From Acidobacteriota bacterium (GTDB lineage: Bacteria > Acidobacteriota > Terriglobia > Bryobacterales > Bryobacteraceae): a DNA stretch of 34,073 nt. Position 1 is the stretch's first letter; each line of letters opens with the position of its first letter. Positions 1 through 34,073 of this stretch are shown here, piece by piece. A program made the position numbers and the translations under genes. Location of the stretch: the NCBI GenBank assembly GCA_947470805.1, contig CANIVU010000096.1, forward strand, positions 1 to 34,073, given 5' to 3'. The notes below the pieces were generated by a model, which did no database searches, was not told the origin of the DNA, and saw nothing but the letters and a program-made list of their open reading frames with translations.

Positions 1-432
1 GGGTATCATCGCAATGTGGACGCCGAGGGGTATCCGGTGATTCAGCCGCCGTGGGGGCAGATTTCGGCGATTGATTTGAGTGGCGCCAAGATCGTGTGGC
101 AGGTGGCGCATGGGGAGTTTAAGAAGCTGACGGCGCGGGGGATGAAGCGTACGGGGACCTATATTCGCGGCGGGAACATTGCGACGAAGGGGGGCGTGCT
201 GTTCGCCGGTGGGACGTTGGATAGTGTCATTCGGGCTTATGATTCGCGGAGTGGAAAAGTACTGTGGGAGAAGTATCTGGGAGGCGGGGCGTTTGCGACG
301 CCGTCGACGTATATGGCGGGCGGGAAGCAATACGTAGTGGTGCCGGTGAGCGATGATTTGAATCCGGAGGAGCCGAGCGAGGCGGGGCCGTACAAGATCG
401 GCGATTTTGTGGCGTTTGTATTGCCGGGGTGA
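1..432 (+). CDS. PQQ-dependent dehydrogenase, C-terminal part (5' truncated)
   Basis: The reading frame is open from the first base, so only the last 143 or so residues of a larger protein are present. The fragment opens with G-Y-x5-D-x2-G-Y-P-x3-P-P-W-G followed by AIDL, which is the blade pattern of membrane-type quinoprotein (glucose/alcohol) dehydrogenases. Further on come GGVLFAGGTLD and ATPSTYMAGGKQYVVV, the last propeller blades. Proteins of this family oxidise sugars or alcohols in the periplasm with pyrroloquinoline quinone and pass electrons to quinone or a cytochrome. The stop codon overlaps the start of the multiheme cytochrome gene, which is a plausible electron acceptor. The substrate cannot be told from this fragment. 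Confidence 0.87.
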   Translation, partial: GYHRNVDAEGYPVIQPPWGQISAIDLSGAKIVWQVAHGEFKKLTARGMKRTGTYIRGGNIATKGGVLFAGGTLDSVIRAYDSRSGKVLWEKYLGGGAFATPSTYMAGGKQYVVVPVSDDLNPEEPSEAGPYKIGDFVAFVLPG

Positions 433-938
433 GTATGCGGATTTTGTTATTGCTGGGTTTTGCGATGGTTTTGCTGGGGCAGGCGCCGCCGCCTCCGAAG
501 GTGTTTGTGCCGAAGACGGCGCCGGAGCAGCCGATTCCGTTCAGCCATAAGACTCACGTCGATTCCGGGATGCAGTGCCGGAACTGCCATGCGATTAAGC
601 CGCCGGGGGATAAGGCGGGGTTGCCGGCGGAGGCGCTTTGCATGGGATGCCATTCGTCGATCAAGAGTGATTCGCCGGCGATTCAGAAGTTGGCTTCGTT
701 TGCACGGGAGAAGCGGGCGGTGCCGTGGGTGCGGGTTTACAAGCTGCCGAAGACGGTGTATTTTTCGCATGACGTGCATGTCCGGCAGGCGAAGGCGGAG
801 TGCGCGACTTGTCATGGACCGGTGCAGGAGCGGGTGGTGCTGGGGCAGGAGAAATCGATTTTCATGGCCGAGTGCATGGCGTGTCACGATCAGCACAAGG
901 CGTCGAATAAGTGTGATCTCTGTCACGATACGCATTAG
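429..938 (+). CDS. Pentaheme c-type cytochrome (c7/class III-like), exported
   Basis: A 169-residue protein with an N-terminal signal peptide (hydrophobic ILLLLGFAMVLLG, then a proline-rich linker). It has five CxxCH heme-attachment motifs: CRNCH near 50, CMGCH near 71, CATCH near 125, CMACH near 149 and CDLCH near 162. Extra histidines in FSHKTHV and FSHDVHV are placed to act as sixth heme ligands, as in c7/c3-type cytochromes. The GTG start at 429 overlaps the stop of the PQQ dehydrogenase gene; an ATG at 435 is an equally possible start. The overlap implies translational coupling and a shared role in periplasmic electron transfer. The heme count is direct; the partnership with the dehydrogenase is inferred. 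Confidence 0.88.
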   Translation: MSMRILLLLGFAMVLLGQAPPPPKVFVPKTAPEQPIPFSHKTHVDSGMQCRNCHAIKPPGDKAGLPAEALCMGCHSSIKSDSPAIQKLASFAREKRAVPWVRVYKLPKTVYFSHDVHVRQAKAECATCHGPVQERVVLGQEKSIFMAECMACHDQHKASNKCDLCHDTH

Positions 939-948
939 GCGGTTGAAG

Positions 949-986
949 TACGAAGAGTTTCGTTGACAACTACGAAGATCTTCGTA
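949..986 (+). promoter_or_regulatory. BlaI-type operator pair
   Basis: A perfect 16-bp palindrome, TACGAAGATCTTCGTA, lies at 971-986. A second site begins at 949 with the same left half TACGAAGA but a poorer right half (GTTTCGTT). The two half-sites are 22 bp apart, close to two helical turns, as expected for two repressor dimers on one face of the DNA. BlaI/MecI repressors bind dyads with TAC...GTA ends, and the blaI-like gene starts 12 bp downstream, so autoregulation is the natural reading. Confidence 0.75.
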
Positions 987-990
987 TATT
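963..990 (+). promoter_or_regulatory. Sigma-70-type promoter of the blaI-M56 operon
   Basis: A consensus -35 box TTGACA at 963-968 is followed after 16 bp by TATATT at 985-990. The palindromic operator fills the whole spacer, so bound repressor would block polymerase. The ATG at 999 lies only 8 bp past the -10 box, so the transcript would have almost no leader. Confidence 0.72.
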
Positions 991-998
991 GTTCCGAT

Positions 999-1370
999 AT
1001 GACTCGAATTCGTCCGACTACCGGGGAGTGGGAGATACTGCAGGCGCTGTGGAAGCTGGGGCCGGCGACGGTGCGCGCGGTGCATGATGAGATCGGGGCC
1101 GGGCACTACAACACCACCTTGAAGCTGATGCAGATACTGGCGGAGAAGGGTCTGGTCGTGCGGGATGAGGAGGCTCGGGCGCATGTTTATAAGGCCGCGG
1201 TGGGGCGGGAGGCGTTGCAGGGGGACGCGGTGGAGGATGTACTGGAGCGGGTGTTTGGCGGGTCGGCGGCGGAGTTGATGCAGCGGGCGCTGGAGCGGCG
1301 GAAGTTGAAGAAACGGGAGTTGGAAGAGCTACGTCGGATGATCGATTCGTTTGAGGGGAAGAAGTCATGA
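999..1370 (+). CDS. blaI: BlaI/MecI/CopY family transcriptional repressor
   Basis: A 123-residue winged-helix repressor. The N-terminal T-x2-E-W-E-I-L-x3-W and the helix-turn-helix with the K-L-M-x2-L-x2-K-G-L core are diagnostic of the BlaI family. The C-terminal half (about 75-123) is charged and helical and would form the dimer. The ATG at 999 is chosen over an upstream in-frame TTG at 963 because family alignment begins at MTRIRPT and because 963 lies in the -35 box. The stop overlaps the next gene's ATG (ATGA), so repressor and membrane protease are co-translated. In known systems the protease causes cleavage of the repressor. No beta-lactamase gene is nearby, so the regulon here is unknown. 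Confidence 0.9.
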   Translation: MTRIRPTTGEWEILQALWKLGPATVRAVHDEIGAGHYNTTLKLMQILAEKGLVVRDEEARAHVYKAAVGREALQGDAVEDVLERVFGGSAAELMQRALERRKLKKRELEELRRMIDSFEGKKS

Positions 1371-2677
1371 TGGACCGGATGCTGGTGGCGGTGGGGTGGG
1401 CGATGGCGGATTCCTTCTGGTGGATTACGGGGATGGCTGTTTGTGTTTGGTTGGTGCTGCGGTTGACGGAGGGGGCGTCGCCGGGCCTGCGGTATGTGGT
1501 GGCGGGTGTTGGCGTTGCCGGGGCGATGGTGGCATTCGCGGCGGGGGTGGTTGGTGATGGGGTGGCGGGTGTCCCGGTGCGTCTGACGGGGCCGGCGGGG
1601 CCGTTGCCGGTGGCGATTGGCTCGGCGCCTTTCGACGGGGCGGACTGGTCGCGGCCGCTGGCGATGTTGTGGTTTTGCGGGGTGATGATTCTGTCGCTAC
1701 GGACAGTTGGGGGATGGGTCTATTTGCGGGTGTTGATCCGGCGGGCGGCGGTGCGGGAGTTGGCGGCGTTTTCCGAGTTGTGTGCGCGAATGGGTGTGCG
1801 TCGGGGTGTGGAGTTGCGAACGACGGTCCGGGTGGATTCGCCGTTTACGGCTGGTTTGTGGCGGCCGGTGATTGTGATCCCGCTGGCGACGCTGGCGGGG
1901 TTGCCGGCGGACCAGTTGGAGGCAGTGCTGTTGCATGAACTGGCGCATATCCGGCGGCATGACTATTTGGCGGAATGGGTGTTGCAGATCGCGGAGACCG
2001 TGCTTTTCTACCATCCGGCGATCTGGTGGATGACTTCGATGATGCGGAAAGAGAGAGAAAGGAGTTGTGACGACATGGCGATTGCCTCGGGAGTGGAACG
2101 CGGGTGCTATGCAAAGGCACTGTTGCGATTGGAGGAGATGCGGGTTCCTGTACTGGCGAACGGCTGGACGGGTTCGGACCTGAACGGGCGTGTGATGCGG
2201 GTATTGGGCAGTCCGTCGCGAACCCCGTCTTGGCCGGTGTTGGCTGCATTGGCCTTCGCGTTGGCGGCGCCGTTTGCACCGCTGATGGTGGCTCAGGTCT
2301 CCAAGCCGTATAGCATGTGGCTCAACGAAGATGTGACCTACATCATTGAGCCGGCGGAACGGAAGCGGTTTGAGTCGTTGCGGAGCGACGCGGAGCGGGA
2401 GCAGTTCATTGAGCAGTTCTGGAAGCGGCGGGACCCAACACCGGCGACGATGGAGAACGAGGCGAAGGACGAGCATTACCGGCGGATTCGATACTCCAAT
2501 GATCGGTTCAAGGAGAGTGGGAAAGCCGGGTGGGCGACGGAGAAGGGGCGGACCTACATTCGGTTTGGCCCGCCGGACGAGATTGAGAGCCATCCGGAGA
2601 GGGGCTACGAGCAGTGGTTGTACAAGGAGATCCCGGAAGTGGGGACGAAGGTGATTTTCGAATTCGGCAAGCGCTGA
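1367..2677 (+). CDS. M56 (BlaR1-type) membrane metallopeptidase fused to a GWxTD domain
   Basis: A 436-residue protein. Hydrophobic segments lie near 14-32, 42-62, 98-118 and 289-309. The zinc-protease motif HELAH is at 190-194, inside the L-L-H-E-L-A-H-I-x-R-H-D-Y block typical of peptidase M56, with a downstream glutamate in the KERERSCDD segment as the likely third zinc ligand. BlaR1 and MecR1 carry a penicillin-binding sensor after the last helix. Here the tail (about 315-436) instead matches the GWxTD domain: W-L-x2-D-V-x-Y-I-I, R-x2-F-I-x2-F-W-x2-R-D-P, G-W-A-T-E at 388-392 and Y-I-R-F-G-P-P-D. The aspartate of the name motif is glutamate here. It is coupled to blaI by ATGA. A role as sensor-protease is inferred; the signal is unknown. 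Confidence 0.85.
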   Translation: MMDRMLVAVGWAMADSFWWITGMAVCVWLVLRLTEGASPGLRYVVAGVGVAGAMVAFAAGVVGDGVAGVPVRLTGPAGPLPVAIGSAPFDGADWSRPLAMLWFCGVMILSLRTVGGWVYLRVLIRRAAVRELAAFSELCARMGVRRGVELRTTVRVDSPFTAGLWRPVIVIPLATLAGLPADQLEAVLLHELAHIRRHDYLAEWVLQIAETVLFYHPAIWWMTSMMRKERERSCDDMAIASGVERGCYAKALLRLEEMRVPVLANGWTGSDLNGRVMRVLGSPSRTPSWPVLAALAFALAAPFAPLMVAQVSKPYSMWLNEDVTYIIEPAERKRFESLRSDAEREQFIEQFWKRRDPTPATMENEAKDEHYRRIRYSNDRFKESGKAGWATEKGRTYIRFGPPDEIESHPERGYEQWLYKEIPEVGTKVIFEFGKR

Positions 2678-2697
2678 AGGCGAGTAAGCTGGGAGGG

Positions 2698-3126
2698 ATG
2701 GCCGAACAGAATTTTCAAAACCACACGAAGTGGGACCCGCCGTTTCACTTCTTTCTTGCGCCCGTGATATTGGGCACGCTCATCTTCTCGGCGAAGCACG
2801 CGTGGGCTTATCCGAATGGCATTACGCTTTGGCTTGTTTTGCTTTCGGTGGCGCTGTTTGTATGGCTGATCAAGACCCGCACCTATGCGCTGGGCGTACA
2901 GAACCGGCTGATCCGGTTGGAAGAGCGGCTGCGGATGCAACAGGTGTTGCCGCCGGAGTTGATGGGGCGTTTTGACGAGTTGACGGTGGGGCAGATCGTG
3001 GGGCTGCGGTTTGCTTCCGATGGAGAACTGACCGACCTGACGCGCCGGGCGCTGGATGAACGGCTGAGCCAGAAACAGATCAAGGCCGCCATTACGAAAT
3101 GGCGGCCCGATCACGTTCGGATCTAG
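2698..3126 (+). CDS. DUF6526-like small membrane protein
   Basis: A 142-residue protein of unknown function. It begins MAEQNFQNHTKWDPPFHFF, a Q-N-x-x-N-H-x-x-x-x-P-x-H pattern that I associate with the DUF6526 family. Two adjacent transmembrane segments lie at about 20-37 and 44-65. The rest is a cytoplasmic, helical, charged region containing RLIRLEERLRM and an RALDE..SQKQIKAAI segment. A GGAGG-like sequence directly precedes the ATG at 2698; in-frame codons further upstream fall inside the M56 gene and are not supported. It is 20 bp from the M56 gene, probably the third gene of that unit. Its stop overlaps the stop of cysN on the other strand. Confidence 0.72.
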   Translation: MAEQNFQNHTKWDPPFHFFLAPVILGTLIFSAKHAWAYPNGITLWLVLLSVALFVWLIKTRTYALGVQNRLIRLEERLRMQQVLPPELMGRFDELTVGQIVGLRFASDGELTDLTRRALDERLSQKQIKAAITKWRPDHVRI

Positions 3127-4838
3127 ATGCCTTCACCGCGCTCGAAGCGGTCCTTGCGGCGCAGGACGCCCAGGTCTTCGAGGCGCTTGATGATGACTTC
3201 GACGGCGTCGTCGTCGCGGGCCGGGAGTTCCTTGGCGGGAACTTCCAGGAACCGGTTGGCGGCGGCGAACCCGGCGGCGCGGTCGCGTTCGCTGGGGTCA
3301 GGCGAGGCGATGGAGCAGATGGCGATGAGGCCGGCGTTGCTCAACACGCGTGAGAGTTCGGGCAGCAGGTGGCTTTCGCTATCGTCGGCGAGAACGTGTA
3401 CCTGGCAGCCGAGATCGAACAGGCGGCGTTCCAGCAGGTAGGCCACGGCGCGGCGGGCGGTGAGCCAGACGGTGGCCGGGTAGTGTCCGGCGCGTGCGAA
3501 GCGTTCGGCATTGGTCAGCTGGGTGCCGGTTGCCGATTCATTGGCTTCGCCGACGAATTCGAGATTGCGGAGCTGGAGCGGTTCGACCGATTCGGGCGTC
3601 GACTCTTCGATCATGCCGGCGGCAACGGTGAGGTTGCTGATGGGATCGATCAGGATGAACGCGCCCATGGCGCGGTTCTTCGAGTAGGCGTCGAAGTACA
3701 GCGGCCGGCGGGTCTCCATGACCACAGCGGCGATTTCGTTCAGTTCGAGTTTTTCGGCCTGGACGTTTTCGAGCGTGTTTATATCGACACGGTGGCGGAT
3801 GCGGCGGATCTCGCAGGGCACCGTTTGCGTGGCGTGTTTCAGGAGATAGGTCCGGTTGGGGCCACCGGCTTCGTCGAGCATCCAGACGAGCTTGGCGGCG
3901 AAGCGGCGGGAGACGTGGGGGACGTGGTTCGGGTCCACCAGCATGTCGCCGCGGCTCAGGTCGATTTCGTCTTCGAGGACGACGGTGATCGACATGGGCG
4001 GGAAGGCTTCCTTCAAGGGCCCGTCGAAGGTGGGCAGTTCCTTGACGCGGGTGACGCGGCCCGCGGGGAGCGACATGACTTCGTCGCCGGGCTTCAGGAC
4101 GCCGGAGGCGAGCTGGCCGGCGAAGCCGCGGAAATCGAGGTTGGGCCGGATGACGTATTGGACGGGGAAACGGAGTTCGGTGAAGTTGCGGTCCTCGGCG
4201 ACGGGCGCCGATTCGAGATGTTCGAGGAGCGGCGTGCCTTTGAACCACGGGGTGCGGGCGCTGCGTTCGACGATGTTGTCGCCATCGAGCGCGGAGATGG
4301 GGAAGAACGCCAGGTTCTTCAGTCCGATGTCTTTGGCGTAGGCGGAGAAATCCTTCTGAATTTGATCGAAGACGGTCTCGCTGAATTCGACCAGATCCAT
4401 CTTGTTGACGGCGACGGCGATGTAGGGAATGCCGAGCAACGAGGCGATGTAGGCGTGGCGGCGCGACTGGGGCAGGACGCCCTTGCGCGCGTCGATCAGC
4501 ACGATGGCGAGATCGGCCGTGGAGGCGCCGGTGGCCATGTTGCGGGTGTACTGTTCGTGGCCCGGCGTGTCGGCGATGATGAACTTGCGCTTGGGCGTGG
4601 CGAAGTAGCGGTAGGCTACGTCGATGGTGATGCCCTGTTCGCGTTCGGCGCGGAGGCCATCGGTGAGGAGTGAGAAATCGATGGGGCCGGTGGAGCGGTT
4701 GATGCTCGACTTTTGCAGCGACGCCATCTGGTCTTCATAGACACCTTTGGCTTCGAACAGCAGGCGGCCGATGAGCGTGGATTTCCCGTCGTCCACGCTG
4801 CCGGCGGTGGAGAAACGGAGGAGTTGCGATTCCGACAT
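3123..4838 (-). CDS. cysN: Sulfate adenylyltransferase large (GTPase) subunit with degenerate APS-kinase-like tail
   Basis: A 571-residue GTPase that drives CysD-catalysed formation of adenosine 5'-phosphosulfate from ATP and sulfate. GTPase motifs are complete: GSVDDGKST at 13-21, GITID near 69-73, DTPGH at 90-94 and NKMD at 145-148, followed by EF-Tu-like barrels to about 430. Stand-alone CysN is near 475 residues and CysNC fusions near 630, so this one is intermediate. Residues 447-558 align with CysC around VWLT, LLERRL, AGLIAICSIASP and SERDRA, but the expected GLSGAGKST P-loop after VWLT is replaced by ARRAVA, and the DGDN region is also lost. APS kinase activity is therefore unlikely. 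It follows cysD after 3 bp and is surely co-transcribed. Confidence 0.93.
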   Translation of the reverse strand: MSESQLLRFSTAGSVDDGKSTLIGRLLFEAKGVYEDQMASLQKSSINRSTGPIDFSLLTDGLRAEREQGITIDVAYRYFATPKRKFIIADTPGHEQYTRNMATGASTADLAIVLIDARKGVLPQSRRHAYIASLLGIPYIAVAVNKMDLVEFSETVFDQIQKDFSAYAKDIGLKNLAFFPISALDGDNIVERSARTPWFKGTPLLEHLESAPVAEDRNFTELRFPVQYVIRPNLDFRGFAGQLASGVLKPGDEVMSLPAGRVTRVKELPTFDGPLKEAFPPMSITVVLEDEIDLSRGDMLVDPNHVPHVSRRFAAKLVWMLDEAGGPNRTYLLKHATQTVPCEIRRIRHRVDINTLENVQAEKLELNEIAAVVMETRRPLYFDAYSKNRAMGAFILIDPISNLTVAAGMIEESTPESVEPLQLRNLEFVGEANESATGTQLTNAERFARAGHYPATVWLTARRAVAYLLERRLFDLGCQVHVLADDSESHLLPELSRVLSNAGLIAICSIASPDPSERDRAAGFAAANRFLEVPAKELPARDDDAVEVIIKRLEDLGVLRRKDRFERGEGI

Positions 4839-4841
4839 GGC

Positions 4842-5747
4842 CTAGAAATACCCCTCGCGCTTCTTCAATTCCATGGAGCCTTCCTGGTCGTGATCGATGA
4901 TGCGGTTTTCGCGTTCGCTGCGGCGGAACTGGACCAGTTCGTTGATGATTTTGGGCATCGTATCGGCGTCGCTCGCGATGCCGCCGGTGCAGAAGGTGCA
5001 GCCGAGGGAGCGCATGCGGCTCATGATCATTTGCGGCTTTTCGCCGGGGGCGAGCGGCATGTTGTGTTCGAGCGGGATTAGCTGATTGCCGCGCACGACC
5101 ATCTCGCGCTCTTTGGCGTAGTAGAGCGGGACGATGGGGATGTTCTCGAGTTCGATGTAAGCCCAGACGTCCATTTCCGTCCAGTTGGACAGGGGGAAGA
5201 CGCGGATGGATTCGCCCTTTTCGACCTTGCTGTTGTAGAGGCTCCAGAGTTCGGGGCGCTGGCTTTTCGGGTCCCACTGGCCGAACTTGTCACGGAAGGA
5301 GAAGACGCGTTCTTTGGCGCGCGATTTCTCTTCGTCGCGGCGGGCGCCGCCGAAGGCCGCGTCATAACCGCCGGCTTCGAGAGCGTCGAGCAGGGCGCGG
5401 GTCTTCAACAGGGCGCAGCATTTGCTGGTACCGAGCTTGAAGGGGTTGGCGCCTTCGTCGATGGCCTTCTGGTTGGTGTGGACGATCAACTCCGCCCCAA
5501 GGTCCTTGGCGAATTGATCGCGGAATTCGATCATTTCCTGGAACTTGTAGGTGGTGTCGACGTGCAACAACGGGAAGGGGAGCTTGCCGGGGAAGAAAGC
5601 CTTTTGCGCGAGGCGGACCATGACCGAAGAGTCCTTGCCGATGGAGTAGAGCATCACCGGTTTGGCAAATTCGGCGACGACCTCTCGCATAATGTGTATG
5701 CTTTCGGCTTCCAGCGCGCGAAGATGGCTGAGAGTACGCGAATCCAT
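4842..5747 (-). CDS. cysD: Sulfate adenylyltransferase small subunit
   Basis: A 301-residue PAPS-reductase-fold protein, the catalytic subunit of ATP sulfurylase. The PP-loop motif [10 protein letters not shown] is near 34, followed by [12 protein letters not shown], the [15 protein letters not shown] segment, and [11 protein letters not shown]. Length matches the usual 300 residues. The start at [19 protein letters not shown] aligns with characterised CysD proteins, so an upstream in-frame codon at 5789 is not used. Together with cysN it activates sulfate for reductive assimilation or for sulfotransferases; no cysH, sulfite reductase or intact cysC is in the window. The start codon shares the tetranucleotide CATG with a possible start of the divergent esterase gene. 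Confidence 0.95.
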
Positions 5748-6909
5748 GTTTCTATTCCAAGGTAGCAATCTAATCGCCCTATTGTCCATGGGGATTGCGG
5801 TATTTGGGCAGGGCGCGCCGGCGCGGTTGACGCAGCATCGGGTGGTGGCGAAGGGGAGTCCGGCGCCATTGGCGGGGGCGGAACAGGTGGAGCTTCCTCG
5901 GCTGGCGGCGACGCGGGCGGAGTGGGAGACGCAGCGGCGGCCGGAGTTGGTGACGGCGTGGAAGCAGATCTTGGGGAAGCTGGAGCCTTCGGCCTCCGAC
6001 CGGCAATGGTTCCACGATGTGCCGCTGATCCGGGAGATCTCGCGGACGGAGTTGCCGGGGTATACGCGGATTCATATTGAGCTGGCGCTGGAGAAAGATT
6101 TTTGGCAGCCGTCGTTGTTGTTGCTGCCGAAGAAGGGGAAGTCGCCGTATCCGGCGGTGATTGCGTGGACGTCGACGACGCCGGACTGGCAGGAGCCGGA
6201 GAAAAACTGGGGGGCGTGGCTGGCGGAGCGCGGCTTCGTGGTGCTGACGGGGTGGAGCCATATACGGAATTACCGGGACGGGTCCACCTACGCGAAGGGC
6301 GCGGCGGAGAAGGTGTATGAGCGGTTTGGGCGGTGGGCGGGGCTGAGCCGGATGGTTTGGGATGTGCGGCAGCAGGCGGCGTTTTTGCGGTCGCGGGGGG
6401 ATGTGGACGCTTCAAAGATCGGATTTATGGGGTTTTCGTTGAGTGCGAAGACGGCGGTGTATGTGGGGGCGTTTGCGCCGGAGATTGCGGCTGTGGTGGC
6501 GATTGATCCGCATATTGCGTTGAACGGCGGCACCAACTATTACGCGCCGTGGTACATGGATTGGACTCGCTCGTTTCCCGACATCGATACGCCGCAGAAG
6601 ACGGTGTTGAGTTTGCTGGATACCGATCCGGGGCGGGCGGGGCTGGAGCATGATCATCACGAGTTGCTGGCGCTGGCGGCGCCGAAGCCGTTTCTATTAA
6701 TTGGCGGGGCAGGGGAGCGGGAGGACAATGGCGGGGATTCCGACGACCGGCAGAGCTGGGGATATGTGAACCGGGCGCACGAGATCTACCGGTTGCTGGG
6801 GGCTCCGGACCGGTTGCGATTTGCGTTGACCAACGATGGGCATCACGCCAACGGGCCGGCGATTGATGATGCGTGGCGGGAGTGGCTGATGCGGTTCTTA
6901 GGTCAGTAA
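5746..6909 (+). CDS. Secreted alpha/beta hydrolase (CE15/acetyl-xylan-esterase-like)
   Basis: A 387-residue hydrolase when started at ATG 5746. That start gives a plausible signal peptide (hydrophobic [13 protein letters not shown], ending near GQG-AP). A later ATG at 5788 would cut it short. The nucleophile elbow GFSLSAK places Ser231 in the position of the GxSRxGK serine of CE15 enzymes. The block AAVVAIDP follows, then [21 protein letters not shown], a pattern of this family, and a C-terminal DGHHANGP with the likely catalytic histidine near 366. The closest roles are glucuronoyl or acetyl esterases acting on plant polysaccharide. The substrate is not known. The gene diverges from cysD and overlaps the following minus-strand gene by 12 bp. 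Confidence 0.8.
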
Positions 6910-7275: not shown

Positions 7276-7278
7276 ACC

Positions 7279-8553: not shown

Positions 8554-8669
8554 CGCATTCCCGTTCCAAATAAATCAGCAAGTTAGCGGGCGTTCAAAAA
8601 CGTTTGGAAACGCGCCGCGCACTTCTGCCGACCCCTTTTCTCCCTCTATCATCACCTAAACGTCTCCTT

Positions 8670-23836: not shown

Positions 23837-23843
23837 GGAGACA

Positions 23844-26210: not shown

Positions 26211-26235
26211 CTTCCTCCATCTTCCGCTGGAATGT

Positions 26236-26946: not shown

Positions 26947-26952
26947 ATGGCT

Positions 26953-27660
26953 CTAGGATGCCGCAGTCGCCGTGGCCATCGCATTCTCTTCCACGATCCG
27001 CCCGTCGAACAGCCGGATGCTCCGTTCGGCGCACCGCGCGAATCGCGGGTCGTGCGTCACCATGCAAATGGTCGCGCCGCCGGCGTGCAGCTCTTCCAGA
27101 AGTGTCATCACCGCCTCGCCGTTCTGCGAATCCAGGTTCCCGGTGGGTTCGTCGGCCAACAGCATCGATGGACTCCCGCCCAACGCCCGTGCTACTGCCA
27201 CGCGTTGCTGCTGCCCACCCGACAACTGCGACGGATAATGTTTGGCCCGGTGGCTCATGCCCACGCGTTCCAACGAATCGAGAACGGCTTTCCGCCGCTC
27301 GGCTGAAGGCATGTTCCGGTACGTCAACGGCAGTTCCACGTTCTCGTACACCGTCAAATCGCCAATCAAGTTGAACGCCTGGAAAATGAACCCGATCTCG
27401 CGGTTCCGGATTCGCGCCCGCTCGGCTGCTTTCAACGAAGCCACCGGCTGCCCGCGCAGCGTGTACTCCCCGCCCGACGGCGAATCCAGCAGCCCCAGAA
27501 TCGCCAGCAAGGTCGACTTCCCACACCCCGACGGTCCGGAGATCGACACATACTCCCCGCGGCGAATCTCCATGTGGATGTCGACCAATGCGTGCGTCTC
27601 CACCTCATCGGTCTGGAACACCTTCTTCACGCCGCGCAACTTGATGATCTCGTCAGCCAT
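26953..27660 (-). CDS. ABC transporter ATP-binding protein, LolD/MacB type
   Basis: A 235-residue ATPase. Walker A GPSGCGKST is at 42-50, the Q-loop in FIFQAFNLI, the signature LSGGQQQRVAVARAL, Walker B MLLADEPTGNLDS, and the switch His in MVTHD. The N-L-I-x-x-L-T-V-x-E-N-V-E-L-P-L block and DSQNG loop place it with LolD/MacB-type ATPases, which power lipoprotein extraction or macrolide/peptide export with FtsX-like permeases. No permease gene adjoins it, so its partner must be elsewhere. A GGAG ribosome site lies 7 nt before the ATG, and 3 bp separate it from the HEAT/TPR gene. Confidence 0.93.
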   Translation of the reverse strand: MADEIIKLRGVKKVFQTDEVETHALVDIHMEIRRGEYVSISGPSGCGKSTLLAILGLLDSPSGGEYTLRGQPVASLKAAERARIRNREIGFIFQAFNLIGDLTVYENVELPLTYRNMPSAERRKAVLDSLERVGMSHRAKHYPSQLSGGQQQRVAVARALGGSPSMLLADEPTGNLDSQNGEAVMTLLEELHAGGATICMVTHDPRFARCAERSIRLFDGRIVEENAMATATAAS

Positions 27661-27663
27661 AAC

Positions 27664-28704
27664 TCACTCCTGCAGTAGTTCCACCAGATAAGCCTGCGCC
27701 TCTTTCGAACGCATATTGCTCAACCGGCGGACGATTTCTTTCTTCATCCCCGCGTCTTTTTCCACCCGTGCCAATTCCACCAGCACGCCCGGTTTCCCGT
27801 AATCACCCAGTGCGGCGACCACCGTCAGCCGCACCCCGTGATCGCTCTCCGTCCGGTACAACTCCTTCAACATCTCCGCCGCATCGGTCCGGCCCAACTG
27901 CCGGATGGCTTCCTTCTTAAACTCCAAGTCCGCCTCCGCCTTCACAATCTGCAGCAGCATCGCCCGGTCCTTCGCCCGCGCCATGCCCTGCAGCGCCATC
28001 CGCTTCACCGCCGCATCGTTCGAACCCTGATAGATCTCGCCCAGTGCCCGTGTCGCCTCCGGTGTTGCCACCGCGCCCAGGTAGTCAATTGCCGTCAGCT
28101 GTAAATCCGGGTTCGCCCCGCCCCGCGCATACTGCGCCACCAACTCGCGCGCCCTCCCGTTCCGGCTCTGCGCCAGCACGTACAGCGCCCGCTGCTTCAT
28201 TCGCGGTGAACTCTTGCCCGAAGCAAGGATCTTCTCCAACAATGGCACCGCCGACTCCGGCTCATTCTGCACCAGTCCGTTCAGCGCCAGCAGCTTCAAA
28301 TCCTCATCGTCCTGCGACGCCGGCGCGGGCTGGCGAATCTCCACTTCCAGCGCCTTTGCATCATTTTTCCAGCGGCTCGACGGATACCCCGTGGCCAACT
28401 CACCCAGCGTGCTCAACGCCTCCGAGTTCTTCCCCAGTCTCCGCAGTGCATAGGCCTTCCAATACAGTGCCCCTTCGACCCGCGCGCCTTTCTCGCGCAC
28501 CACCTGATCAAACAACAGCACAGCTTTCTCATACTGCCGCTCGTCGATCAGCCGGATCGCGCTCCGATACAGGTCCGCCCCCGCCCAAGTCATCTTGGGG
28601 GTAGGGTGCGTCGCGGGGTGCGCCGCCGGAACCGGAACCGGTTGTGCCAGCATTCCGCCGGCCGTCATGAGCATCGCCAATCCAATACGAGTTTTTATAC
28701 GCAT
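27664..28704 (-). CDS. Exported TPR/HEAT-repeat protein
   Basis: A 346-residue protein. The ATG at 28704 has a GAGGA ribosome site and yields a signal peptide (RIGLAMLMTAGGMLA). A GTG at 28722 overlapping the anti-sigma stop (GTGA) is the alternative start. Residues about 40-115 are TPR-like (YRSAIRLIDERQYEKAVLLFDQVV, ALYWKAYALRRLGKNSEALSTLGEL). From about 135 to the end come HEAT-type helices at roughly 30-residue spacing (LKLLALNGL, AIDYLGAVA, KRMALQGMARA, KKEAIRQLGR, LTVVAALGDYG, KKEIVRRLSNM). It is a periplasmic scaffold or binding protein of unknown partner, set between the anti-sigma gene and the ABC ATPase gene. Confidence 0.83.
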   Translation of the reverse strand: MRIKTRIGLAMLMTAGGMLAQPVPVPAAHPATHPTPKMTWAGADLYRSAIRLIDERQYEKAVLLFDQVVREKGARVEGALYWKAYALRRLGKNSEALSTLGELATGYPSSRWKNDAKALEVEIRQPAPASQDDEDLKLLALNGLVQNEPESAVPLLEKILASGKSSPRMKQRALYVLAQSRNGRARELVAQYARGGANPDLQLTAIDYLGAVATPEATRALGEIYQGSNDAAVKRMALQGMARAKDRAMLLQIVKAEADLEFKKEAIRQLGRTDAAEMLKELYRTESDHGVRLTVVAALGDYGKPGVLVELARVEKDAGMKKEIVRRLSNMRSKEAQAYLVELLQE

Positions 28705-28718
28705 ACGTTCCTCGAAAG

Positions 28719-29369
28719 TCACAAAATTCCTTCTCTGCCCGTTCGCACCTGGATGGCGAACAACACACCCTTGGCCTCAATCCGCCGGCGCAGCTCCTCC
28801 GAGCCCGCCGGCGCATGGGCCACCTCCACCAGCACTTCTTCCAGATCTTCCAGCAGTTGCCCCGTGTCGGCCTGGCCCTCGGCCTCCGCCGTTTGCCGGT
28901 ACAGACGGTTGTCCGCCAGTAGATCCTCCGCCGTCTGCCGCGTCCACCCATCTCCGGCGTCTTGCCCATTCACAATCTCTGTCAATACCAAACGGCTCGA
29001 TTCCAGATGGCTCTCCAATGCCACCTCCAGCACCCGCGCCGAAACGTCATCCCGCGCCGGGGCAAACGCCTCCTGCCCGCTTCCAAACTGCAATGCCACC
29101 CCTACCAACAGGCCCGCCGCCAACGCGCCCGCCGCAGCCCAGGAATACCGCCGCACCCGCACCCTAGCCTCCACCATCGCCCAAACCCGCCTCCCATATG
29201 CCGAGTCCCGCTCCGGCACCGCGCCGGCGTCCATCGTGTTCAACAGCCGCTGCAACGACTGATACTCCTCGCGGCAAACCGCGCACGCCTCGACGTGCGC
29301 ACGGGTATCCTCCGTGCCCGTCTCCCCGTAATAGAGCAACACCAGCGCTTCTTCATTTACATGGTCCAT
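28719..29369 (-). CDS. Transmembrane zinc-finger anti-sigma factor
   Basis: A 216-residue protein from the ATG at 29369. The zinc-binding anti-sigma motif H-x3-C-x2-C is at His25, Cys29 and Cys32 (AHVEACAVC). One transmembrane helix lies at about 75-96 (YSWAAAGALAAGLLVGVALQF), after a basic stretch that fixes the N-terminus inside the cell. The periplasmic part is rich in acidic helices (LLEDLEEVLVEVA). The protein would hold the ECF sigma factor at the membrane until a signal arrives. The gene overlaps the sigma gene by 13 bp, which ensures balanced production. Confidence 0.9.
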   Translation of the reverse strand: MDHVNEEALVLLYYGETGTEDTRAHVEACAVCREEYQSLQRLLNTMDAGAVPERDSAYGRRVWAMVEARVRVRRYSWAAAGALAAGLLVGVALQFGSGQEAFAPARDDVSARVLEVALESHLESSRLVLTEIVNGQDAGDGWTRQTAEDLLADNRLYRQTAEAEGQADTGQLLEDLEEVLVEVAHAPAGSEELRRRIEAKGVLFAIQVRTGREGIL

Positions 29370-29923
29370 AACGTAATCACCACCAATCCCACCCAAGGCC
29401 CCAACACCTGCCGCAGCTTCCGCACGGCCCGAAAAATCGATTGCTTCGTCGCGTTCTCGCTCAAGCCCAACTTCTGCGAGATCGCATCGATCCCCATCCC
29501 CTCGTAGTGCCGCAGCGTGAACGCCATCCGCTCCTGAAAGCTCAATTGCTCCATCGTCCTCGCAATCACCTCTCCGATCCGCCGGCTATTCGCCTCCCGG
29601 TCCGGCCCGGGCGCCTCGCAAGCCGCATCAACCTCGACTGCCGGATCCACAAACCGCTTTCGCCGTCGAATCATGTCCAGCGCGCAATGCGCCGCGATCG
29701 TCCCTACCCAGGTGGCGAAACTCGCTCGCGACTCATACCGCCGGATCTCCCGAAACGCCCGCAAAAAAGCCTCCTGCACAACCTCTTCCGCATCGCTCTC
29801 GTTCCCGGTAATCCGATACGCCAACCGGAACACACCCCGGCTGTGCCGCTCCACCAGCAGCCCAAACGCGTCCCGGTCTCCACCGATCACCCGGCCAATC
29901 GCCGCCAGGTCCGTTTCTTCCAT
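29357..29923 (-). CDS. ECF RNA polymerase sigma factor (RpoE-like)
   Basis: A 188-residue sigma factor from the ATG at 29923; an ATG at 29950 would add nine residues. Region 2 is clear: GDRDAFGLLVERHSRGVFRLAYRITGNESDAEEVVQEAFLRAFREIRRY, FATWVGTIAAHCALDMIRRRKR. Region 4 follows: LSFQERMAFTLRHYEGMGIDAISQKLGLSENATKQSIFRAVRKLRQVL, the helix-turn-helix for the -35 element. A weakly hydrophobic tail (WVGLVVITLWTM) overlaps the anti-sigma gene. Five same-strand genes with gaps of 3-25 bp follow, so this unit is likely autoregulated. It is divergent from murB by 46 bp. Confidence 0.93.
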   Translation of the reverse strand: MEETDLAAIGRVIGGDRDAFGLLVERHSRGVFRLAYRITGNESDAEEVVQEAFLRAFREIRRYESRASFATWVGTIAAHCALDMIRRRKRFVDPAVEVDAACEAPGPDREANSRRIGEVIARTMEQLSFQERMAFTLRHYEGMGIDAISQKLGLSENATKQSIFRAVRKLRQVLGPWVGLVVITLWTM

Positions 29924-29969
29924 TCCCAAACTTAGACTCCGCCGCCCCATTCCGGTTAGCCTGAAAAGG

Positions 29970-30938
29970 ATGACGTTTTCCCCAGAGGTCCTCGGCAGAC
30001 TCTCCCACGTACCCGGCCTTCGCGTTCTCCCCGGCGCGGAACTCCGCCACCATACCCGGTTCCAACTCGGCGGTCCCTGCTGGTTCCTGGCCGATGCCGA
30101 GACCCCCGAAGCCTTTCAATCCGCCTATCAAACGCTCTCCGCCGCCCAGATCCCCTGGACCTCCATCGGCCGCGGGACGAATCTCATCGTCAACGACGCC
30201 GGCTGCCCCGGCGCCATCCTTCGCTACTCCGCCGCCCAAAAAACCGTGTCACACACAATTATTTCTGTGCACGCCGGAGCCGAGCTGAACGACCTCGTCG
30301 ACTTCGCCAATGCCAACGCGCTCGCCGGCCTGGAATCCATGGCCGGCATCCCCGGCTGGGTCGGCGGCGCCATCTACGGCAACGCCGGCGCCTACGGCCA
30401 GTCCATTCATCAGCGCATCGAATCCGTCGAGTTTTTCGACGGCGCCGCCGTCCGCGTCTGGTCCAACGAGGAGTGCGGCTTTCGCTACCGCCACTCCCGC
30501 TTCAAGGAAAACAAGGCCCTGCAAATTCTCTCCGCCCGGCTCCGTTGCGAACCCGGAAATCAACAAATCCTTGAGGAAAAGTCGAAAAACATCCGTGCTA
30601 CACGAGACGCCAAATTCCCGCCGACCATGCCCTGCGCCGGCAGCATCTTCAAAAACTTCCTGCTGAAAGACCTCCCCGAAAAAGCCCGCGCCGCCGTCCC
30701 GCCCGAAAAGATCATCGAAGGCAAAGTCCCCGCCGGCTGGTTCCTGGAACAGATCGGCGCGCGCGGCATGCAGGTCGGTGGAATCCGCGTTGCCGACTAC
30801 CACGCCAATCTCATCTACAACACCGGCACCGGCACCACCGTCGACCTCCTCACCCTCATCGCCACCCTCAAAAATGGTGCCAGGCACCATTTTAATCTTT
30901 CGCTCGAAGAAGAAGTCCAATACCTGGGATTCGCATGA
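29970..30938 (+). CDS. murB: UDP-N-acetylenolpyruvoylglucosamine reductase
   Basis: A 322-residue flavoenzyme that reduces UDP-GlcNAc-enolpyruvate to UDP-MurNAc with NADPH, in peptidoglycan precursor synthesis. The FAD-binding motifs are IGRGTNLIVND and G-x-E-x-M-A-G-I-P-G-W-V-G-G-A-I-Y-G-N-A-G-A-Y-G at 120-143. GSIFKNF at 224-230 holds the catalytic serine (Ser225), and HANLIYNTGTGTTVDLL is near the end. The start at ATG 29970 fits family length; AAAAGG abuts the codon. A long upstream in-frame extension is ruled out because it lies in the sigma gene. A perfect palindrome sits inside the last 25 codons. The stop overlaps the ankyrin gene's ATG (ATGA). Confidence 0.94.
   Translation: MTFSPEVLGRLSHVPGLRVLPGAELRHHTRFQLGGPCWFLADAETPEAFQSAYQTLSAAQIPWTSIGRGTNLIVNDAGCPGAILRYSAAQKTVSHTIISVHAGAELNDLVDFANANALAGLESMAGIPGWVGGAIYGNAGAYGQSIHQRIESVEFFDGAAVRVWSNEECGFRYRHSRFKENKALQILSARLRCEPGNQQILEEKSKNIRATRDAKFPPTMPCAGSIFKNFLLKDLPEKARAAVPPEKIIEGKVPAGWFLEQIGARGMQVGGIRVADYHANLIYNTGTGTTVDLLTLIATLKNGARHHFNLSLEEEVQYLGFA
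30871..30893. repeat. Palindrome inside the 3' end of murB
   Basis: Arms AAAATGGTGCC and GGCACCATTTT (11 bp each, perfect) flank a single A. It is read in frame as Lys-Asn-Gly-Ala-Arg-His-His-Phe within the C-terminal helix of MurB. Its A/T ends and GC core look like a mobile palindromic repeat or terminator-like hairpin, but it lies 45 bp before the murB stop. Confidence 0.7.
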
Positions 30939-31789
30939 TCGATATCGCCATCCAAACCGCCGACGTCGGCGCCCTGAACCTGTTGCTCACCGACGACCCC
31001 TCCCTCGCCACCCCCGGCCTCGTCCAACTCGCCTCCCAGCCCCCGGTCGCCGGTCCCGACACGCTCCGCCGCATGGCCGATTTGCTCCTCCACGCCGGTG
31101 CCGATCCCAATCACCACGAGGTCCTCTACCACGCCTGCGAACACCCCCACCACGCCATTCTCGAACCCGTCCTCAATTCCCCCCGCCTTGAACCCCCGTG
31201 GCTCAGCTACTGCCTCCTCCACAAGCTCGACTACGAAGACCTTGAAGGCGTCCAACTCATGCTCAAAGCCGGTGCCGACCCCAATCTCCGCTCCCGCACC
31301 GGCGACCGTGAAATGAGTCTCCACCACGCCATTCGCCGCGGCCGCTCCGCCACCATGCTCGATCTGCTTCTCAGCCACGGCGCCCGCCCCGACATCATCA
31401 ACATCCACAACCACACCGCCCGCCGCCAAGCCATTCGCTTCGGCCGTACCGACCTCGGCAAAACCGCCCCCGAAGCCACGCCGCTCGATCACTGGCTCTA
31501 CCAACTCTGGCACGAACCGGCTGAATCTCCCGCTCCCGAGCCGCTCACTAAGCAGGACCACCGCCTCCTCCCCGAAGCCGCCTGGATGCAGAACCATACC
31601 GCTGTTTCGAACATGCTCGAAGCCGGCTTTCCCGTCGACGCCACAACCCACGACGACCTCCAGGCAATCGACTTCGCCGCCTATCACAACGACGAACGCC
31701 TGCTCGAAATCCTGATCGCCCACGGGGCGACGCAAGAACAATACGACGCGGCCGTCGACTGGCTGACCGGCGACGCCAGCCCATCCTGA
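30935..31789 (+). CDS. Ankyrin-repeat protein
   Basis: A 284-residue cytoplasmic protein. Ankyrin units are visible as LLLHAGADPNHHEVLYHACE, VQLMLKAGADPNLRSRTGDREMSLHHAIRRGRSATMLDLLLSHGARPDIINIHNHTARRQAIRFG and VSNMLEAGFPVDATTHDDLQAIDFAAYHNDERLLEILIAHGA, with the H-A-G-A-D-P-N turn repeated. There are about six units, some degenerate. It would bind another protein; the partner is not known. The gene overlaps murB by ATGA, so it is co-translated. Codons end mainly in C, unlike plus-strand genes at the left of the window. Confidence 0.85.
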   Translation: MIDIAIQTADVGALNLLLTDDPSLATPGLVQLASQPPVAGPDTLRRMADLLLHAGADPNHHEVLYHACEHPHHAILEPVLNSPRLEPPWLSYCLLHKLDYEDLEGVQLMLKAGADPNLRSRTGDREMSLHHAIRRGRSATMLDLLLSHGARPDIINIHNHTARRQAIRFGRTDLGKTAPEATPLDHWLYQLWHEPAESPAPEPLTKQDHRLLPEAAWMQNHTAVSNMLEAGFPVDATTHDDLQAIDFAAYHNDERLLEILIAHGATQEQYDAAVDWLTGDASPS

Positions 31790-31797
31790 TCGTCCGT

Positions 31798-32730
31798 CTA
31801 CGACGCCGTCGCTACCAGATAATTCGCCGCCGCCAGCCCGGATGCCACCGCTCCCCCAACCCGTCCGCCCCCAAATACATCGCCCGCGAATACTAACCTG
31901 TCCACCGCGTGGAACAATTCGGGCATCTGCATCGCCGGCTCCGCATAACGCCACCGGTGCAGGTAGTACGATCGAACTCGCCCGCTAAAATAGGGCTCCG
32001 CCGCCGCCAGCATGGCATGCACCGCCACCGCCTGCGGTTCGTCCCAGTGCGCCTCGCTGAACTCTCTCGTGCCGTGCAGCGTCAGGCATCCCGGCATCGC
32101 GGAAACCCCTTTGGCCTGATTGTCGCCTACCCACGCCAACACTCCATCCCCAGGCTCCGCAAACCCGTTCTCTCCCACCTGCGTCGTTCCTTCCACCCGA
32201 ACCAGGATCGTGACGCATTTCCAGTACGAAGCCTGTTCTAACACTCCGCGGTCCGCCGCCTCCAGCTCAACTCCGCCTTGTTCCAGCAGCGCCAACGATT
32301 GCGGCACCGGGGGCGTAAGTAATAGCTTCCCCGTCTGCACCGTCTCGCCCGTTTCCAGCTCCACCGTCCATCCGCCCCCAGCCGATTCCACCCGGACCAC
32401 CTTCACTCCCGTACGCACGTCCAATCCCGCCGCCAGCGTCTCCGCCACGGCTCGCATCCCCTCAGCCGATCGAAATCGATGTTCCGTCCAAGGAACCGCC
32501 AACCCACTCGCAATCCACGGACGGGCCAACTCCGCAAAGGAATCGTCCCGTGTCGTGAAAAACTGCGCGCCATAATCGAACCGGCCCTCGTCAAACGTCC
32601 GAGTGGCCATCCTTCCCCCCGCCACTCGCCCTTTGTCCACAATGGTCACCCGCCAACCAGCGGACTGCAGCCGTTGTCCGGCGGCCAATCCCGCCATACC
32701 CGCGCCGACAATCAGGCAGGTTCTTTCCAC
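31798..32730 (-). CDS. FAD-dependent oxidoreductase, renalase-like
   Basis: A 310-residue flavoprotein from the GTG at 32730; a TTG at 32736 would add two residues. The N-terminal LIVGAGMAGLAAGQRLQSAGWRVTIVDKGRVAGGRMATR is a Rossmann dinucleotide fold with the G-x-G-x-x-G and a following G-G-R-M motif, as in amine-oxidase/renalase-type enzymes. RFDYGAQFFTTRD and the C-terminal LVFAGDVFGGGRVGGAVASGLAAANYL bind FAD. Related proteins oxidise isomeric nicotinamide cofactors or amines; the real substrate here is not known. The stop lies 8 bp from that of the convergent ankyrin gene. The DUF1501 gene is upstream on the same strand, 44 bp away. Confidence 0.85.
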   Translation of the reverse strand: MERTCLIVGAGMAGLAAGQRLQSAGWRVTIVDKGRVAGGRMATRTFDEGRFDYGAQFFTTRDDSFAELARPWIASGLAVPWTEHRFRSAEGMRAVAETLAAGLDVRTGVKVVRVESAGGGWTVELETGETVQTGKLLLTPPVPQSLALLEQGGVELEAADRGVLEQASYWKCVTILVRVEGTTQVGENGFAEPGDGVLAWVGDNQAKGVSAMPGCLTLHGTREFSEAHWDEPQAVAVHAMLAAAEPYFSGRVRSYYLHRWRYAEPAMQMPELFHAVDRLVFAGDVFGGGRVGGAVASGLAAANYLVATAS

Positions 32731-32750
32731 GAACAACTAGATTTCGGAGC

Positions 32751-32766
32751 GCACCCTGTCGGGTGC
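32751..32766. repeat. Small hairpin between the DUF1501 and renalase-like genes
   Basis: GCACCC and GGGTGC flank a TGTC loop, 8 bp after the stop of the DUF1501 gene. There is no T-run after it on the minus strand, so it is at best a weak terminator or a processing site. Confidence 0.35.
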
Positions 32767-32774
32767 AACTTAAT

Positions 32775-34073
32775 TTACAGGAGTACCTTCTTCACCACTT
32801 CCCCTCGAACTCCCGTAATCCTCTGATTGAAACCCTGATAGAAATACGTCAACTTCGTATGGTCCAGTCCCAGCAGATGCAACAGTGTCGCGTGCAAGTC
32901 CGAAACATGTACCCGGTCCTCGACGGCCGCAAACCCCAAATCGTCAGTCGCCCCAATCGCCTGCCCACCCTTCACGCCCGCCCCGGCCAGCCACATCGAA
33001 AACCCATGCCAGTCGTGGTCGCGCCCAGGCTTCCCCACGCCCTCGCTCGTCGGCGTCCGCCCAAACTCGCCTCCCCATAGCAGCAGCGTCTCATCCCACA
33101 ACCCCGTCGCCTTCAAGTCTTCAATCAGTGCCGCGATCGGCTTATCCGTCTCCCCGGCATGCAACCGGTGGTTGGTGATGCAGTCGTTGTGCCCGTCCCA
33201 GGTGTCTTCAATATGCCCGCCCCCGGAGTACAACTGCACGAACCGCACGCCCTTCTCCAACAGTCGTCGCGTCATCAAACACTTCCGCCCGAAGTCGGCG
33301 GTCAGCTTATCGTCCAACCCATACCGCTCCCGCGTCGAAGCCGTTTCGCGTGACAAATCCACGACCGACGCCGCTTCCATCTGCATCCGGTACGCCAGTT
33401 CATACGAAGCAATCCGCGCCGACAACTCGCTCTCCTCCGCATGCGTCGCCAAATGCTCTTCGTTCAATTTCTTCAGTAAATCCAACGATTGCCGCTGCGT
33501 CCTGTCATCCACGCCCGCCGGCGGCTTCAAGTCCAACAACGGCGCCGCCCCCGACCGGAACAGCGTTCCCTGATACGCCGCGGGCATGTACCCAGCCGTC
33601 CAGTTCGACGCACTGCCAATCGGTCCGCCCCGCGGATCGGTCATCACCACAAACGCCGGCAGGCTCTGGTTGTCGGTCCCCAGTCCATAGGTCACCCACG
33701 CCCCCGCGCTCGGTTTGCCCAGAAAAATGCTGCCCGTGTTCATCTGCAAACAGCCCGAAGCATGCGCCGCCGTATCGGTGTACATGGACCGGATCACGCA
33801 CAAATCATCGGCATACTTCGACGTGTGCGGGAACAGGTCACTGATCATCAACCCGCTCTTCCCGCGCGGCTTGAACTCAAACGGCGACTGCATCAAATAC
33901 CCCACCGGCCGCCCATTCGAACCTACCGCCAACGGCCCCTTGTAGGCCTGCCCGTTGTACTTCGTCAACTCGGGCTTGTAGTCGAACGTGTCCACCTGGC
34001 TCGGCGCGCCATTCATAAACAGGAACACCGCCCGCTTCGCCTTCGCCGCGAAGTGCGGCTTCTTCGGCGCCAA
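32775..34073 (-). CDS. DUF1501 (sulfatase-like) protein, N-terminus outside the window
   Basis: 432 residues are present; the frame runs off the right edge, so the true start is not seen. The blocks RAVFLFMNGAPSQVDTFDYKPEL, GLMISDLFPHTSKYADDLCVIRSM, DTAAHASGCLQMNTG, GAWVTYGLGTDNQSLPAFVV and LLLWGGEFGRTPTSEGVGKPGRDHDWHGFSMWLAGAGVKGG are the DUF1501 signature. The fold belongs to the alkaline-phosphatase/sulfatase superfamily and would be exported. In Planctomycetes and Acidobacteria such genes usually follow a cytochrome-containing DUF1549/DUF1553 gene, which would lie beyond the right edge. The enzymatic role is unproven. Confidence 0.92.
   Translation of the reverse strand: MAPKKPHFAAKAKRAVFLFMNGAPSQVDTFDYKPELTKYNGQAYKGPLAVGSNGRPVGYLMQSPFEFKPRGKSGLMISDLFPHTSKYADDLCVIRSMYTDTAAHASGCLQMNTGSIFLGKPSAGAWVTYGLGTDNQSLPAFVVMTDPRGGPIGSASNWTAGYMPAAYQGTLFRSGAAPLLDLKPPAGVDDRTQRQSLDLLKKLNEEHLATHAEESELSARIASYELAYRMQMEAASVVDLSRETASTRERYGLDDKLTADFGRKCLMTRRLLEKGVRFVQLYSGGGHIEDTWDGHNDCITNHRLHAGETDKPIAALIEDLKATGLWDETLLLWGGEFGRTPTSEGVGKPGRDHDWHGFSMWLAGAGVKGGQAIGATDDLGFAAVEDRVHVSDLHATLLHLLGLDHTKLTYFYQGFNQRITGVRGEVVKKVLL

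What the first reader, a model, noticed from the sequence alone, without database searches (positions are those of the whole stretch)
1..34073. Strand G/C asymmetry reverses inside the window: candidate replication-terminus boundary near 18-21 kb
On the given strand, bases 1501-1560 (plus-strand gene) contain 34 G and 9 C, and 4141-4200 (minus-strand gene) 26 G and 11 C. On the right, 25021-25080 (minus-strand gene) contain 9 G and 31 C, and 31021-31080 (plus-strand gene) 15 G and 31 C. The sign depends on position, not on which strand is coding. Between them 18241-18300 is still G-rich (23 to 14), 18961-19020 is even (21 to 21) and 20281-20340 is C-rich (16 to 26). Leading strands are usually G-rich, so a plus-to-minus change along the strand is what a terminus gives. 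I found no canonical dif sequence.
Basis: partly seen in the sequence, partly recalled or inferred. Interest (0 to 1): 0.72.

Follow-up and report, generated by a model that had tools for sequence, protein, structure and literature searches.

The report
Bacterial chromosome with sawtooth strand asymmetry
The G/C reversal is real but is probably not the chromosome's single end point: it is one of many alternating strand-bias domains in this bacterium, which looks as if its DNA were copied from many starting places instead of one.

Summary
In detail: all seven base counts are exact, and cumulative GC skew peaks at 20.6 kb, a swing that no permutation of 0.5- or 1-kb blocks matched. The reading as the chromosome's terminus is not upheld.

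The window is a whole contig (C96) of an 8.7 Mb Bryobacterales genome. In 1.34 Mb of that genome skew alternates about 24 times per Mb (16 rises, 16 falls), which extrapolates to roughly 100 domains. 100 kb of E. coli and 120 kb of family member G025 show none. Rises are sharper than falls (not significant in G003 or G171). dnaA with DnaA boxes sits at one rise. A dif-like site lies on another contig, where skew rises.

The bias is positional: both gene strands and intergenic DNA share it, the same gene block trends oppositely in other species, and own-lineage substitution ratios flip along the window.

Best explanation: fork polarity alternates locally, so replication commonly starts at many sites; the window is one fork-convergence zone. 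Rearrangement junctions add some sharp steps, rises and falls alike. The mechanism is inferred; no initiation motif was found.

The parts
1..18900 (.). G-rich (plus) flank of the skew domain; third-position skew +0.50 at 0-8.5 kb and +0.31 at 12.2-18 kb on sites aligned in G003 and G014
18938..23089 (.). zone of sign change (fork-convergence zone in the favoured reading); cumulative-skew maximum at 20,599
   Evidence: maximum and bootstrap interval; codon-corrected maximum 20,602
23090..34073 (.). C-rich (minus) flank; third-position skew -0.32 at 24-28 kb and -0.54 at 28-34 kb on aligned sites; in G014 and G003 the DNA continues into the relative of own contig C5:1, which in own stays minus for about 52 kb
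6896..12190 (.). stretch absent at this place from G003 and G014 (in G003 the missing part begins at 5.8 kb); its 8604-12155 part, an outer-membrane (TonB-receptor-like) gene on the plus strand, has near-zero skew: likely an insertion not yet adjusted to the local bias
16478..18747 (-). ispF-ispD-PIN/TRAM genes; the PIN/TRAM gene is the anchor used to compare the locus in other Bryobacterales

Best explanation
The window is one descending limb of a sawtooth of strand asymmetry that runs through all of the genome I read at length. SHOWN: skew alternates about 24 times per Mb; it affects third codon positions, both gene strands and intergenic DNA; asymmetric substitution is seen in the own lineage and flips along the window; minus-to-plus changes are on average sharper than plus-to-minus changes in this genome; the dnaA locus is one of the minus-to-plus sites; three other such sites kept their place to within about 1 kb in one collinear relative each. 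INFERRED: the asymmetry tracks the local average direction of replication forks, so forks commonly start at many sites (about one per 80 kb, roughly 100 in all, oriC being only one) and meet over broader zones between them; this window is one such zone. The sites other than oriC have no strict DnaA boxes, so initiation there would be DnaA-independent, for instance recombination- or R-loop-dependent (guess). Rearrangement breakpoints coincide with some of these sites and with some falls, and add sharp steps.
For: Alternation. Both gene strands and intergenic DNA alike. Same gene block and orientation with opposite skew trend in other species (L148, L118 falling; L124, L141 rising; L160 minus through most of its length): so not transcription. 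Own-lineage substitution at third positions: C>T per C over G>A per G is 3.4, 2.2, 0.64, 0.36 from left to right. Sawtooth asymmetry: skewness of successive differences 1.00, 1.18, 1.07, 0.76 at 3, 4, 6, 8 kb bins, P 0.0040, 0.0026, 0.0054, 0.0144. dnaA and DnaA boxes at a rise. Rises kept in collinear relatives: C4/G003, C5/G014, C3/G002. Decline in the window kept in G003 and G014 with collinear genes. Falls lie nearer the midpoint between rises than uniform, P=0.0066, n=7.
Against: No replication data; skew is a proxy. No shared motif, gene family, tRNA or AT-rich spacer found at the rises. Genes are not co-oriented with the G-rich strand (516 of 1002), unlike most bacteria (recalled). The sawtooth asymmetry is not significant in G003 (400 kb) or G171 (160 kb), and some rises in relatives are gradual (G003 137-155 kb; L124, L141). 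The dnaA rise is weak on its left and was not picked up by the step scan. The midpoint result is P=0.078 against uniform over 0.15-0.85, and one of its seven pairs uses a rise added by hand. Two of the sharpest rises (C7, C8) and two of three falls examined (C2, C8) are at or close to rearrangement junctions.
Confidence: 0.47

Rival explanations
1. One origin and one terminus, but a chromosome so often inverted that blocks of opposite skew lie side by side; the alternation is a rearrangement mosaic not yet erased.
For: Rises at C7:13.09 kb and C8:86.97 kb and the fall at C2:25.7 kb coincide with synteny breakpoints to within tens of bases to a few hundred bases of the skew estimate. The C8 fall is at 69.34 kb by cumulative maximum, 0.14 kb from a break at 69.2 kb, or at 70.8 kb by step scan. 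G010 joins the C7 left block to DNA like C6:103 kb, minus on both sides. The near-zero skew of the inserted gene in the window shows that moved DNA takes time to adjust.
Against: Inversion should give equally sharp steps of both signs, but rises are sharper than falls in this genome. The gradual reversal inside a block collinear in own, G003 and G014 has no inversion ends to make it. Own-lineage substitution bias runs in opposite directions at the two ends of the window, whereas after an inversion both sides would be driven the same way. Rises at C4, C5 and C3 lie in stretches collinear with at least one relative.
Confidence: 0.28
2. A strand-asymmetric, domain-scale process other than replication (for example recombination-linked repair synthesis or long-range gene conversion starting at fixed sites) drives the bias.
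For: Three of five rises examined are places where some relatives differ by rearrangement or insertion; no strict initiator box except at dnaA; no gene co-orientation.
Against: The dnaA locus shows the same polarity of change as the other rises, though smaller on its left. G over C and T over A on the same strand is the usual leading-strand signature (recalled). End resection at a break would give the opposite sign at the sharp sites (reasoning).
Confidence: 0.18
3. The window holds the chromosome's replication terminus.
For: Polarity, and the extremum at 20.6 kb; the decline is present in two relatives.
Against: 16 falls in 1.34 Mb; dif candidate on C63; dif-arm search in the window gives 2 matches with 2 mismatches each against 6.5 expected by chance.
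Confidence: 0.02
4. Transcription-linked asymmetry or gene-orientation composition.
For: A coding-strand effect exists at codon positions 1 and 2.
Against: Both gene strands carry the same positional skew; the same block with the same gene order has opposite trends in other species.
Confidence: 0.03

Closest known systems
Skew N-domains of the human genome (PMC3320577 and PMC2722678, passages seen)
   Same: Abrupt minus-to-plus jumps and slower decline between them; evolutionary breakpoints tend to lie near the jumps (PMC2722678); the bias is read as average fork polarity.
   Different: A bacterium; domains of about 80 kb instead of about a megabase; larger skew (human size recalled); no gene co-orientation found here; jumps not experimentally mapped.
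Ordinary bacterial replichore skew (single oriC, single terminus/dif; recalled)
   Same: dnaA with DnaA boxes at a minus-to-plus change; one good dif-like site; leading-strand-type G and T excess.
   Different: About 24 reversals per Mb in the part read; dif candidate not at a plus-to-minus change.
Multi-origin archaeal chromosomes and recombination-dependent replication (recalled; PMC11005403 and PMC12999951 seen only as search listings)
   Same: Several starting points on one chromosome; the recombination-dependent mode needs no initiator site.
   Different: Roughly a hundred domains by extrapolation, in a bacterium that has dnaA.

Membership tests
Single replication terminus of a bacterial chromosome | unique plus-to-minus skew change per chromosome | tested here: not met
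   16 plus-to-minus and 16 minus-to-plus alternations in 1.34 of 8.71 Mb
Single replication terminus of a bacterial chromosome | dif site at or near the change | tested here: not met
   candidate on C63 near 25.12-25.15 kb; no good arm match in the window; the candidate is a motif match only
N-domain (replication skew domain) | sharp up-jumps, gradual declines | tested here: met
   own genome P 0.003-0.014; not significant in G003 and G171
N-domain (replication skew domain) | skew independent of gene strand, present in intergenic DNA | tested here: met
N-domain (replication skew domain) | decline crosses zero near the middle of the domain | tested here: inconclusive
   7 complete domains, P=0.0066 or 0.078 depending on the null
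N-domain (replication skew domain) | jumps are initiation sites | not testable with these tools
   only the dnaA rise has strict DnaA boxes; no replication data
Inversion mosaic | reversals coincide with synteny breakpoints | tested here: inconclusive
   5 rises examined: C7 and C8 at breaks in the relatives aligned there, C3 mixed, C4 and C5 inside collinear stretches; 3 falls: C2 at a break in 3 of 5 genomes, C8 0.14 to 1.6 kb from a break depending on the estimate, window collinear

The most novel reading that the evidence does not exclude
A bacterial chromosome is routinely replicated from about a hundred fixed but largely DnaA-independent starting sites, making eukaryote-like replication domains of about 80 kb whose borders are also places of frequent rearrangement.
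Probability: 0.33. Interest if true: 0.95.

Novelty: new variant of a known kind. Interest (0 to 1): 0.77.

Why it matters
Bacteria are taught as having one origin and one terminus per chromosome. A sawtooth of this density would mean either that an acidobacterial lineage replicates differently, or that strand asymmetry can be written by a process not yet described. A relative in the same family has a 9.48 Mb contig in a two-contig assembly with a weaker sawtooth in the 160 kb I read (G171), so fork mapping in a cultured member could decide. It also warns that skew-based calls of origin, terminus and misassembly may be unsafe in such genomes.

Tried and rejected
Gene orientation as cause: rejected. 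Common gene family at rises: 20 proteins near 13 of 16 rises were scanned; no shared family explains them (two have the outer-membrane barrel OMP_b-brl_4), 4 had no Pfam match at 1e-6, and none of the names is a transposase or integrase. Common 8-, 10- or 12-mers within 1 or 2 kb of 16 rises: only low-count words, which I judge not significant given the number tested. DnaA boxes: strict boxes near the dnaA rise only; a relaxed form gives 3 hits near two other rises. tRNA genes: 6 found in 1.34 Mb, none within 20 kb of a rise. Repeats in the window: only short chance-like pairs and one terminator-like hairpin. No tRNA in the window. Literature: nine searches were answered (two of them with no paper at all); titles and abstract starts listed no sawtooth skew in a bacterium. 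I saw passages only of PMC3174227, PMC2330069, PMC3025954, PMC8941118, PMC2722678 and PMC3320577. The Solibacter paper (PMC3174227) shows GC skew in figures that I could not see. SkewDB (PMC8941118) mentions multiple origins, inversions or assembly problems as readings of one odd Salmonella plot. Subscription papers and preprints are largely outside the library.

Limits: 1.34 of 8.71 Mb was read. C1-C8 were taken for length (C3 and C5 whole, the others not to their ends), C36 for dnaA, C10 and C120 because their first 20 kb showed a reversal, and C96 is the window. Of the 18 other contigs first sampled, 12 are not in the counts. The dnaA rise and one rise at C6:13 kb were added by hand; the step scan did not list them. 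C120 was left out of the width list. Gene calls come from my own simple caller. Synteny was examined for 5 rises and 3 falls only.

Full report
Observation. The range of cumulative skew was not reached in 10,000 permutations of 0.5- or 1-kb blocks (P 0.0003 and 0.0017 with 2- and 3-kb blocks). Skew falls from +0.3 to +0.4 to about -0.3, with the cumulative maximum at 20,599 (bootstrap 18.9-23.1 kb). The window is the whole of contig C96 (34,073 bases) of an 8,706,545-base, 220-contig genome. Its closest named relatives by the PIN/TRAM protein are MAGs titled Acidobacteria, Candidatus Sulfopaludibacter and Bryobacterales. The genes look ordinary: peptidase M56/GWxTD protein, EF-Tu-type GTPase and PAPS-reductase-domain protein, outer-membrane barrel protein, cytochrome P450, IspF, IspD, PIN domain protein, 2-hydroxyacid (phosphoglycerate) dehydrogenase, MurB-type protein, DUF1501.

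The reversal is not unique. First stretches (3 to 20 kb) of 18 other contigs already showed sign changes in C3, C10, C30, C40 and C120. Reading 1,336,009 bases of 12 contigs (profiles) shows a zigzag: 264 five-kb bins have SD 0.223, 69% exceed 0.15 in size, and there are 16 rises and 16 falls, 24 alternations per Mb. The same measure gives 0 alternations in 100 kb of E. coli K-12, 0 in 120 kb of family member G025, 1 in 120 kb of G147, 4 in 160 kb of G171 (on a 9.48 Mb contig) and 4 in 400 kb of genus-mate G003. Of 20-kb stretches, 27 of 111 in own show a reversal at a 0.08 threshold, against 0 of 6 (E. coli), 0 of 10 (G025), 2 of 38 (G003) and 1 of 14 (G171). Extrapolated from 15% of the genome, there would be about 104 rises.

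It is positional and mutational. In chosen domains of 6 contigs (364 kb), third-position skew in plus domains is +0.54 in minus-strand and +0.43 in plus-strand genes; in minus domains it is -0.43 and -0.51; intergenic DNA is +0.22 and -0.24. The block PIN-IspD-IspF-monooxygenase-P450-peptidase, in the same order and orientation, falls from plus to minus in L118 and L148, rises in L124 and L141, and is minus through most of L160. Of 40 loci of 20 kb or more around this gene, 3 show a plus-to-minus reversal at a 0.08 threshold, 0 the reverse and 2 are constant plus; the other 35, L124 and L141 among them, pass no class, so most of the family is weaker than this genome. At sites where G003 and G014 agree, own-lineage changes at third positions show C>T per C against G>A per G of 3.4 at 0-8.5 kb, 2.2 at 12.2-18 kb, 0.64 at 18-23 kb and 0.36 at 24-34 kb (17 to 74 changes per class; parsimony can misassign some). 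So the bias has acted in this lineage and changes along the window. Third-position skew on sites aligned in all three falls from left to right overall in own, G003 and G014, with zero near 21-24 kb in own, near 20 kb in G014 and near 28 kb in G003.

Shape. Successive differences of skew are positively skewed in the own genome (1.00, 1.18, 1.07, 0.76 for 3, 4, 6, 8 kb; P 0.0040, 0.0026, 0.0054, 0.0144 with block sign flips), meaning sharp rises and slower falls; this is not significant in G003 or G171. A step scan with 5-kb arms lists 15 rises and 10 falls. For 7 pairs of neighbouring rises (one of them using a rise added by hand) the fall lies at 0.26-0.71 of the distance, nearer the midpoint than uniform (P=0.0066) but not clearly so if falls cannot lie in the outer 15% (P=0.078). 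Widths between -0.15 and +0.15 are 2.25-5.75 kb for 14 of 15 rises measured (one gave no value; C120 was not measured) and 3.0-12.75 kb for 7 falls.

Origin and dif. The one DnaA match of the genome (C36:25,758-26,243) lies at a rise, which is weak on its left and was not listed by the step scan. Strict DnaA boxes occur 4 times in 1.34 Mb, two of them beside dnaA and none near another rise. A dif-like 28-mer lies on C63 near 25.12-25.15 kb; the core is found there at 1 mismatch and on C146 at 3, with 0 in the backward control. A 23-base form with up to 3 mismatches is found in 6 of 19 genus genomes (3 of 13 of the more complete ones), once in five and twice in G014, varying mainly in the middle hexamer. 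Skew at C63 goes from -0.3 through zero near 28 kb to +0.17 at 30 kb. The match to dif arms rests on recalled consensus sequences; PMC3025954 (passages) reports dif predicted in 3 of 3 Acidobacteria.

Relation to rearrangement. Five rises were set against relatives. C7:13.09 kb and C8:86.97 kb are breakpoints: matches stop or start within tens of bases of these places in G010 and G014 (and G004, G003 for one side), and G010 continues with other DNA in both cases. C3:12.35 kb is collinear in G002 and G018 (and in G004 with a short insert), moved in G014, and carries a 7.2-kb insert in G003; G002 keeps the rise on a 6.3-kb contig, G018 shows it weakly, and G003 and G014 lack it. C5:132.4 kb is collinear in G010, G002, G014 and G004, with no good match in G003; G014 keeps the rise in the same 0.5-kb bin, though its right side is weak. 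C4:40.35 kb is collinear in G003 and kept. Of three falls, the window is collinear in G003 and G014 apart from the inserted stretch; the C2 fall at 25.7-26.1 kb is at a break in G003, G014 and G002 but not in G010; the C8 fall, at 69.3 or 70.8 kb by two estimates, has a break at 69.2 kb with collinearity to its right. So rearrangement makes some steps of both signs, but not the gradual fall of the window. The number tested is too small for a rate.

Interpretation. A gradual, recently maintained reversal inside a stable gene block needs a spatially changing strand bias. The simplest known source is average fork polarity, as argued for human N-domains (PMC3320577, PMC2722678, passages). This implies many common start sites. 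Rises other than dnaA show no shared motif, gene or spacer in what I tested, so I can only guess at a recombination- or R-loop-dependent start. The absence of gene co-orientation (516 of 1002) is a real point against a long-lived fork-direction pattern, though fast reshuffling would also remove it.

Novelty. Nine answered searches of the open-licence library listed no account of such a pattern in a bacterium. That is not proof of absence.

Noticed in passing
window 6896-12190: Stretch absent at this place from G003 and G014; its outer-membrane gene (8604-12155) has nearly zero skew inside a plus domain, so lack of local bias may date insertions.
   Followed up: partly
window 19410-19454: 20-base inverted repeat with a 5-base loop between an RRM-protein gene and the phosphoglycerate dehydrogenase gene: a strong terminator-like hairpin.
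   Followed up: no
G000:C63 near 25.12-25.15 kb (L267, L269): Candidate dif site: one copy in five genus genomes, two in G014, not found in 13 of 19 at 3 mismatches; the middle hexamer varies.
   Followed up: partly
L110 (DYJN01000051.1): Record titled Arcobacter sp. carries a Bryobacterales-type locus at 66% GC: probably mislabelled.
   Followed up: no
window right end / G000:C5:1: In G014 and G003 the relatives of C96 and C5 are adjacent, so C96 and C5 are probably neighbours in this genome.
   Followed up: partly
G018:C64:10447-11451: The PIN/TRAM gene match has one in-frame TAG in G018.
   Followed up: no
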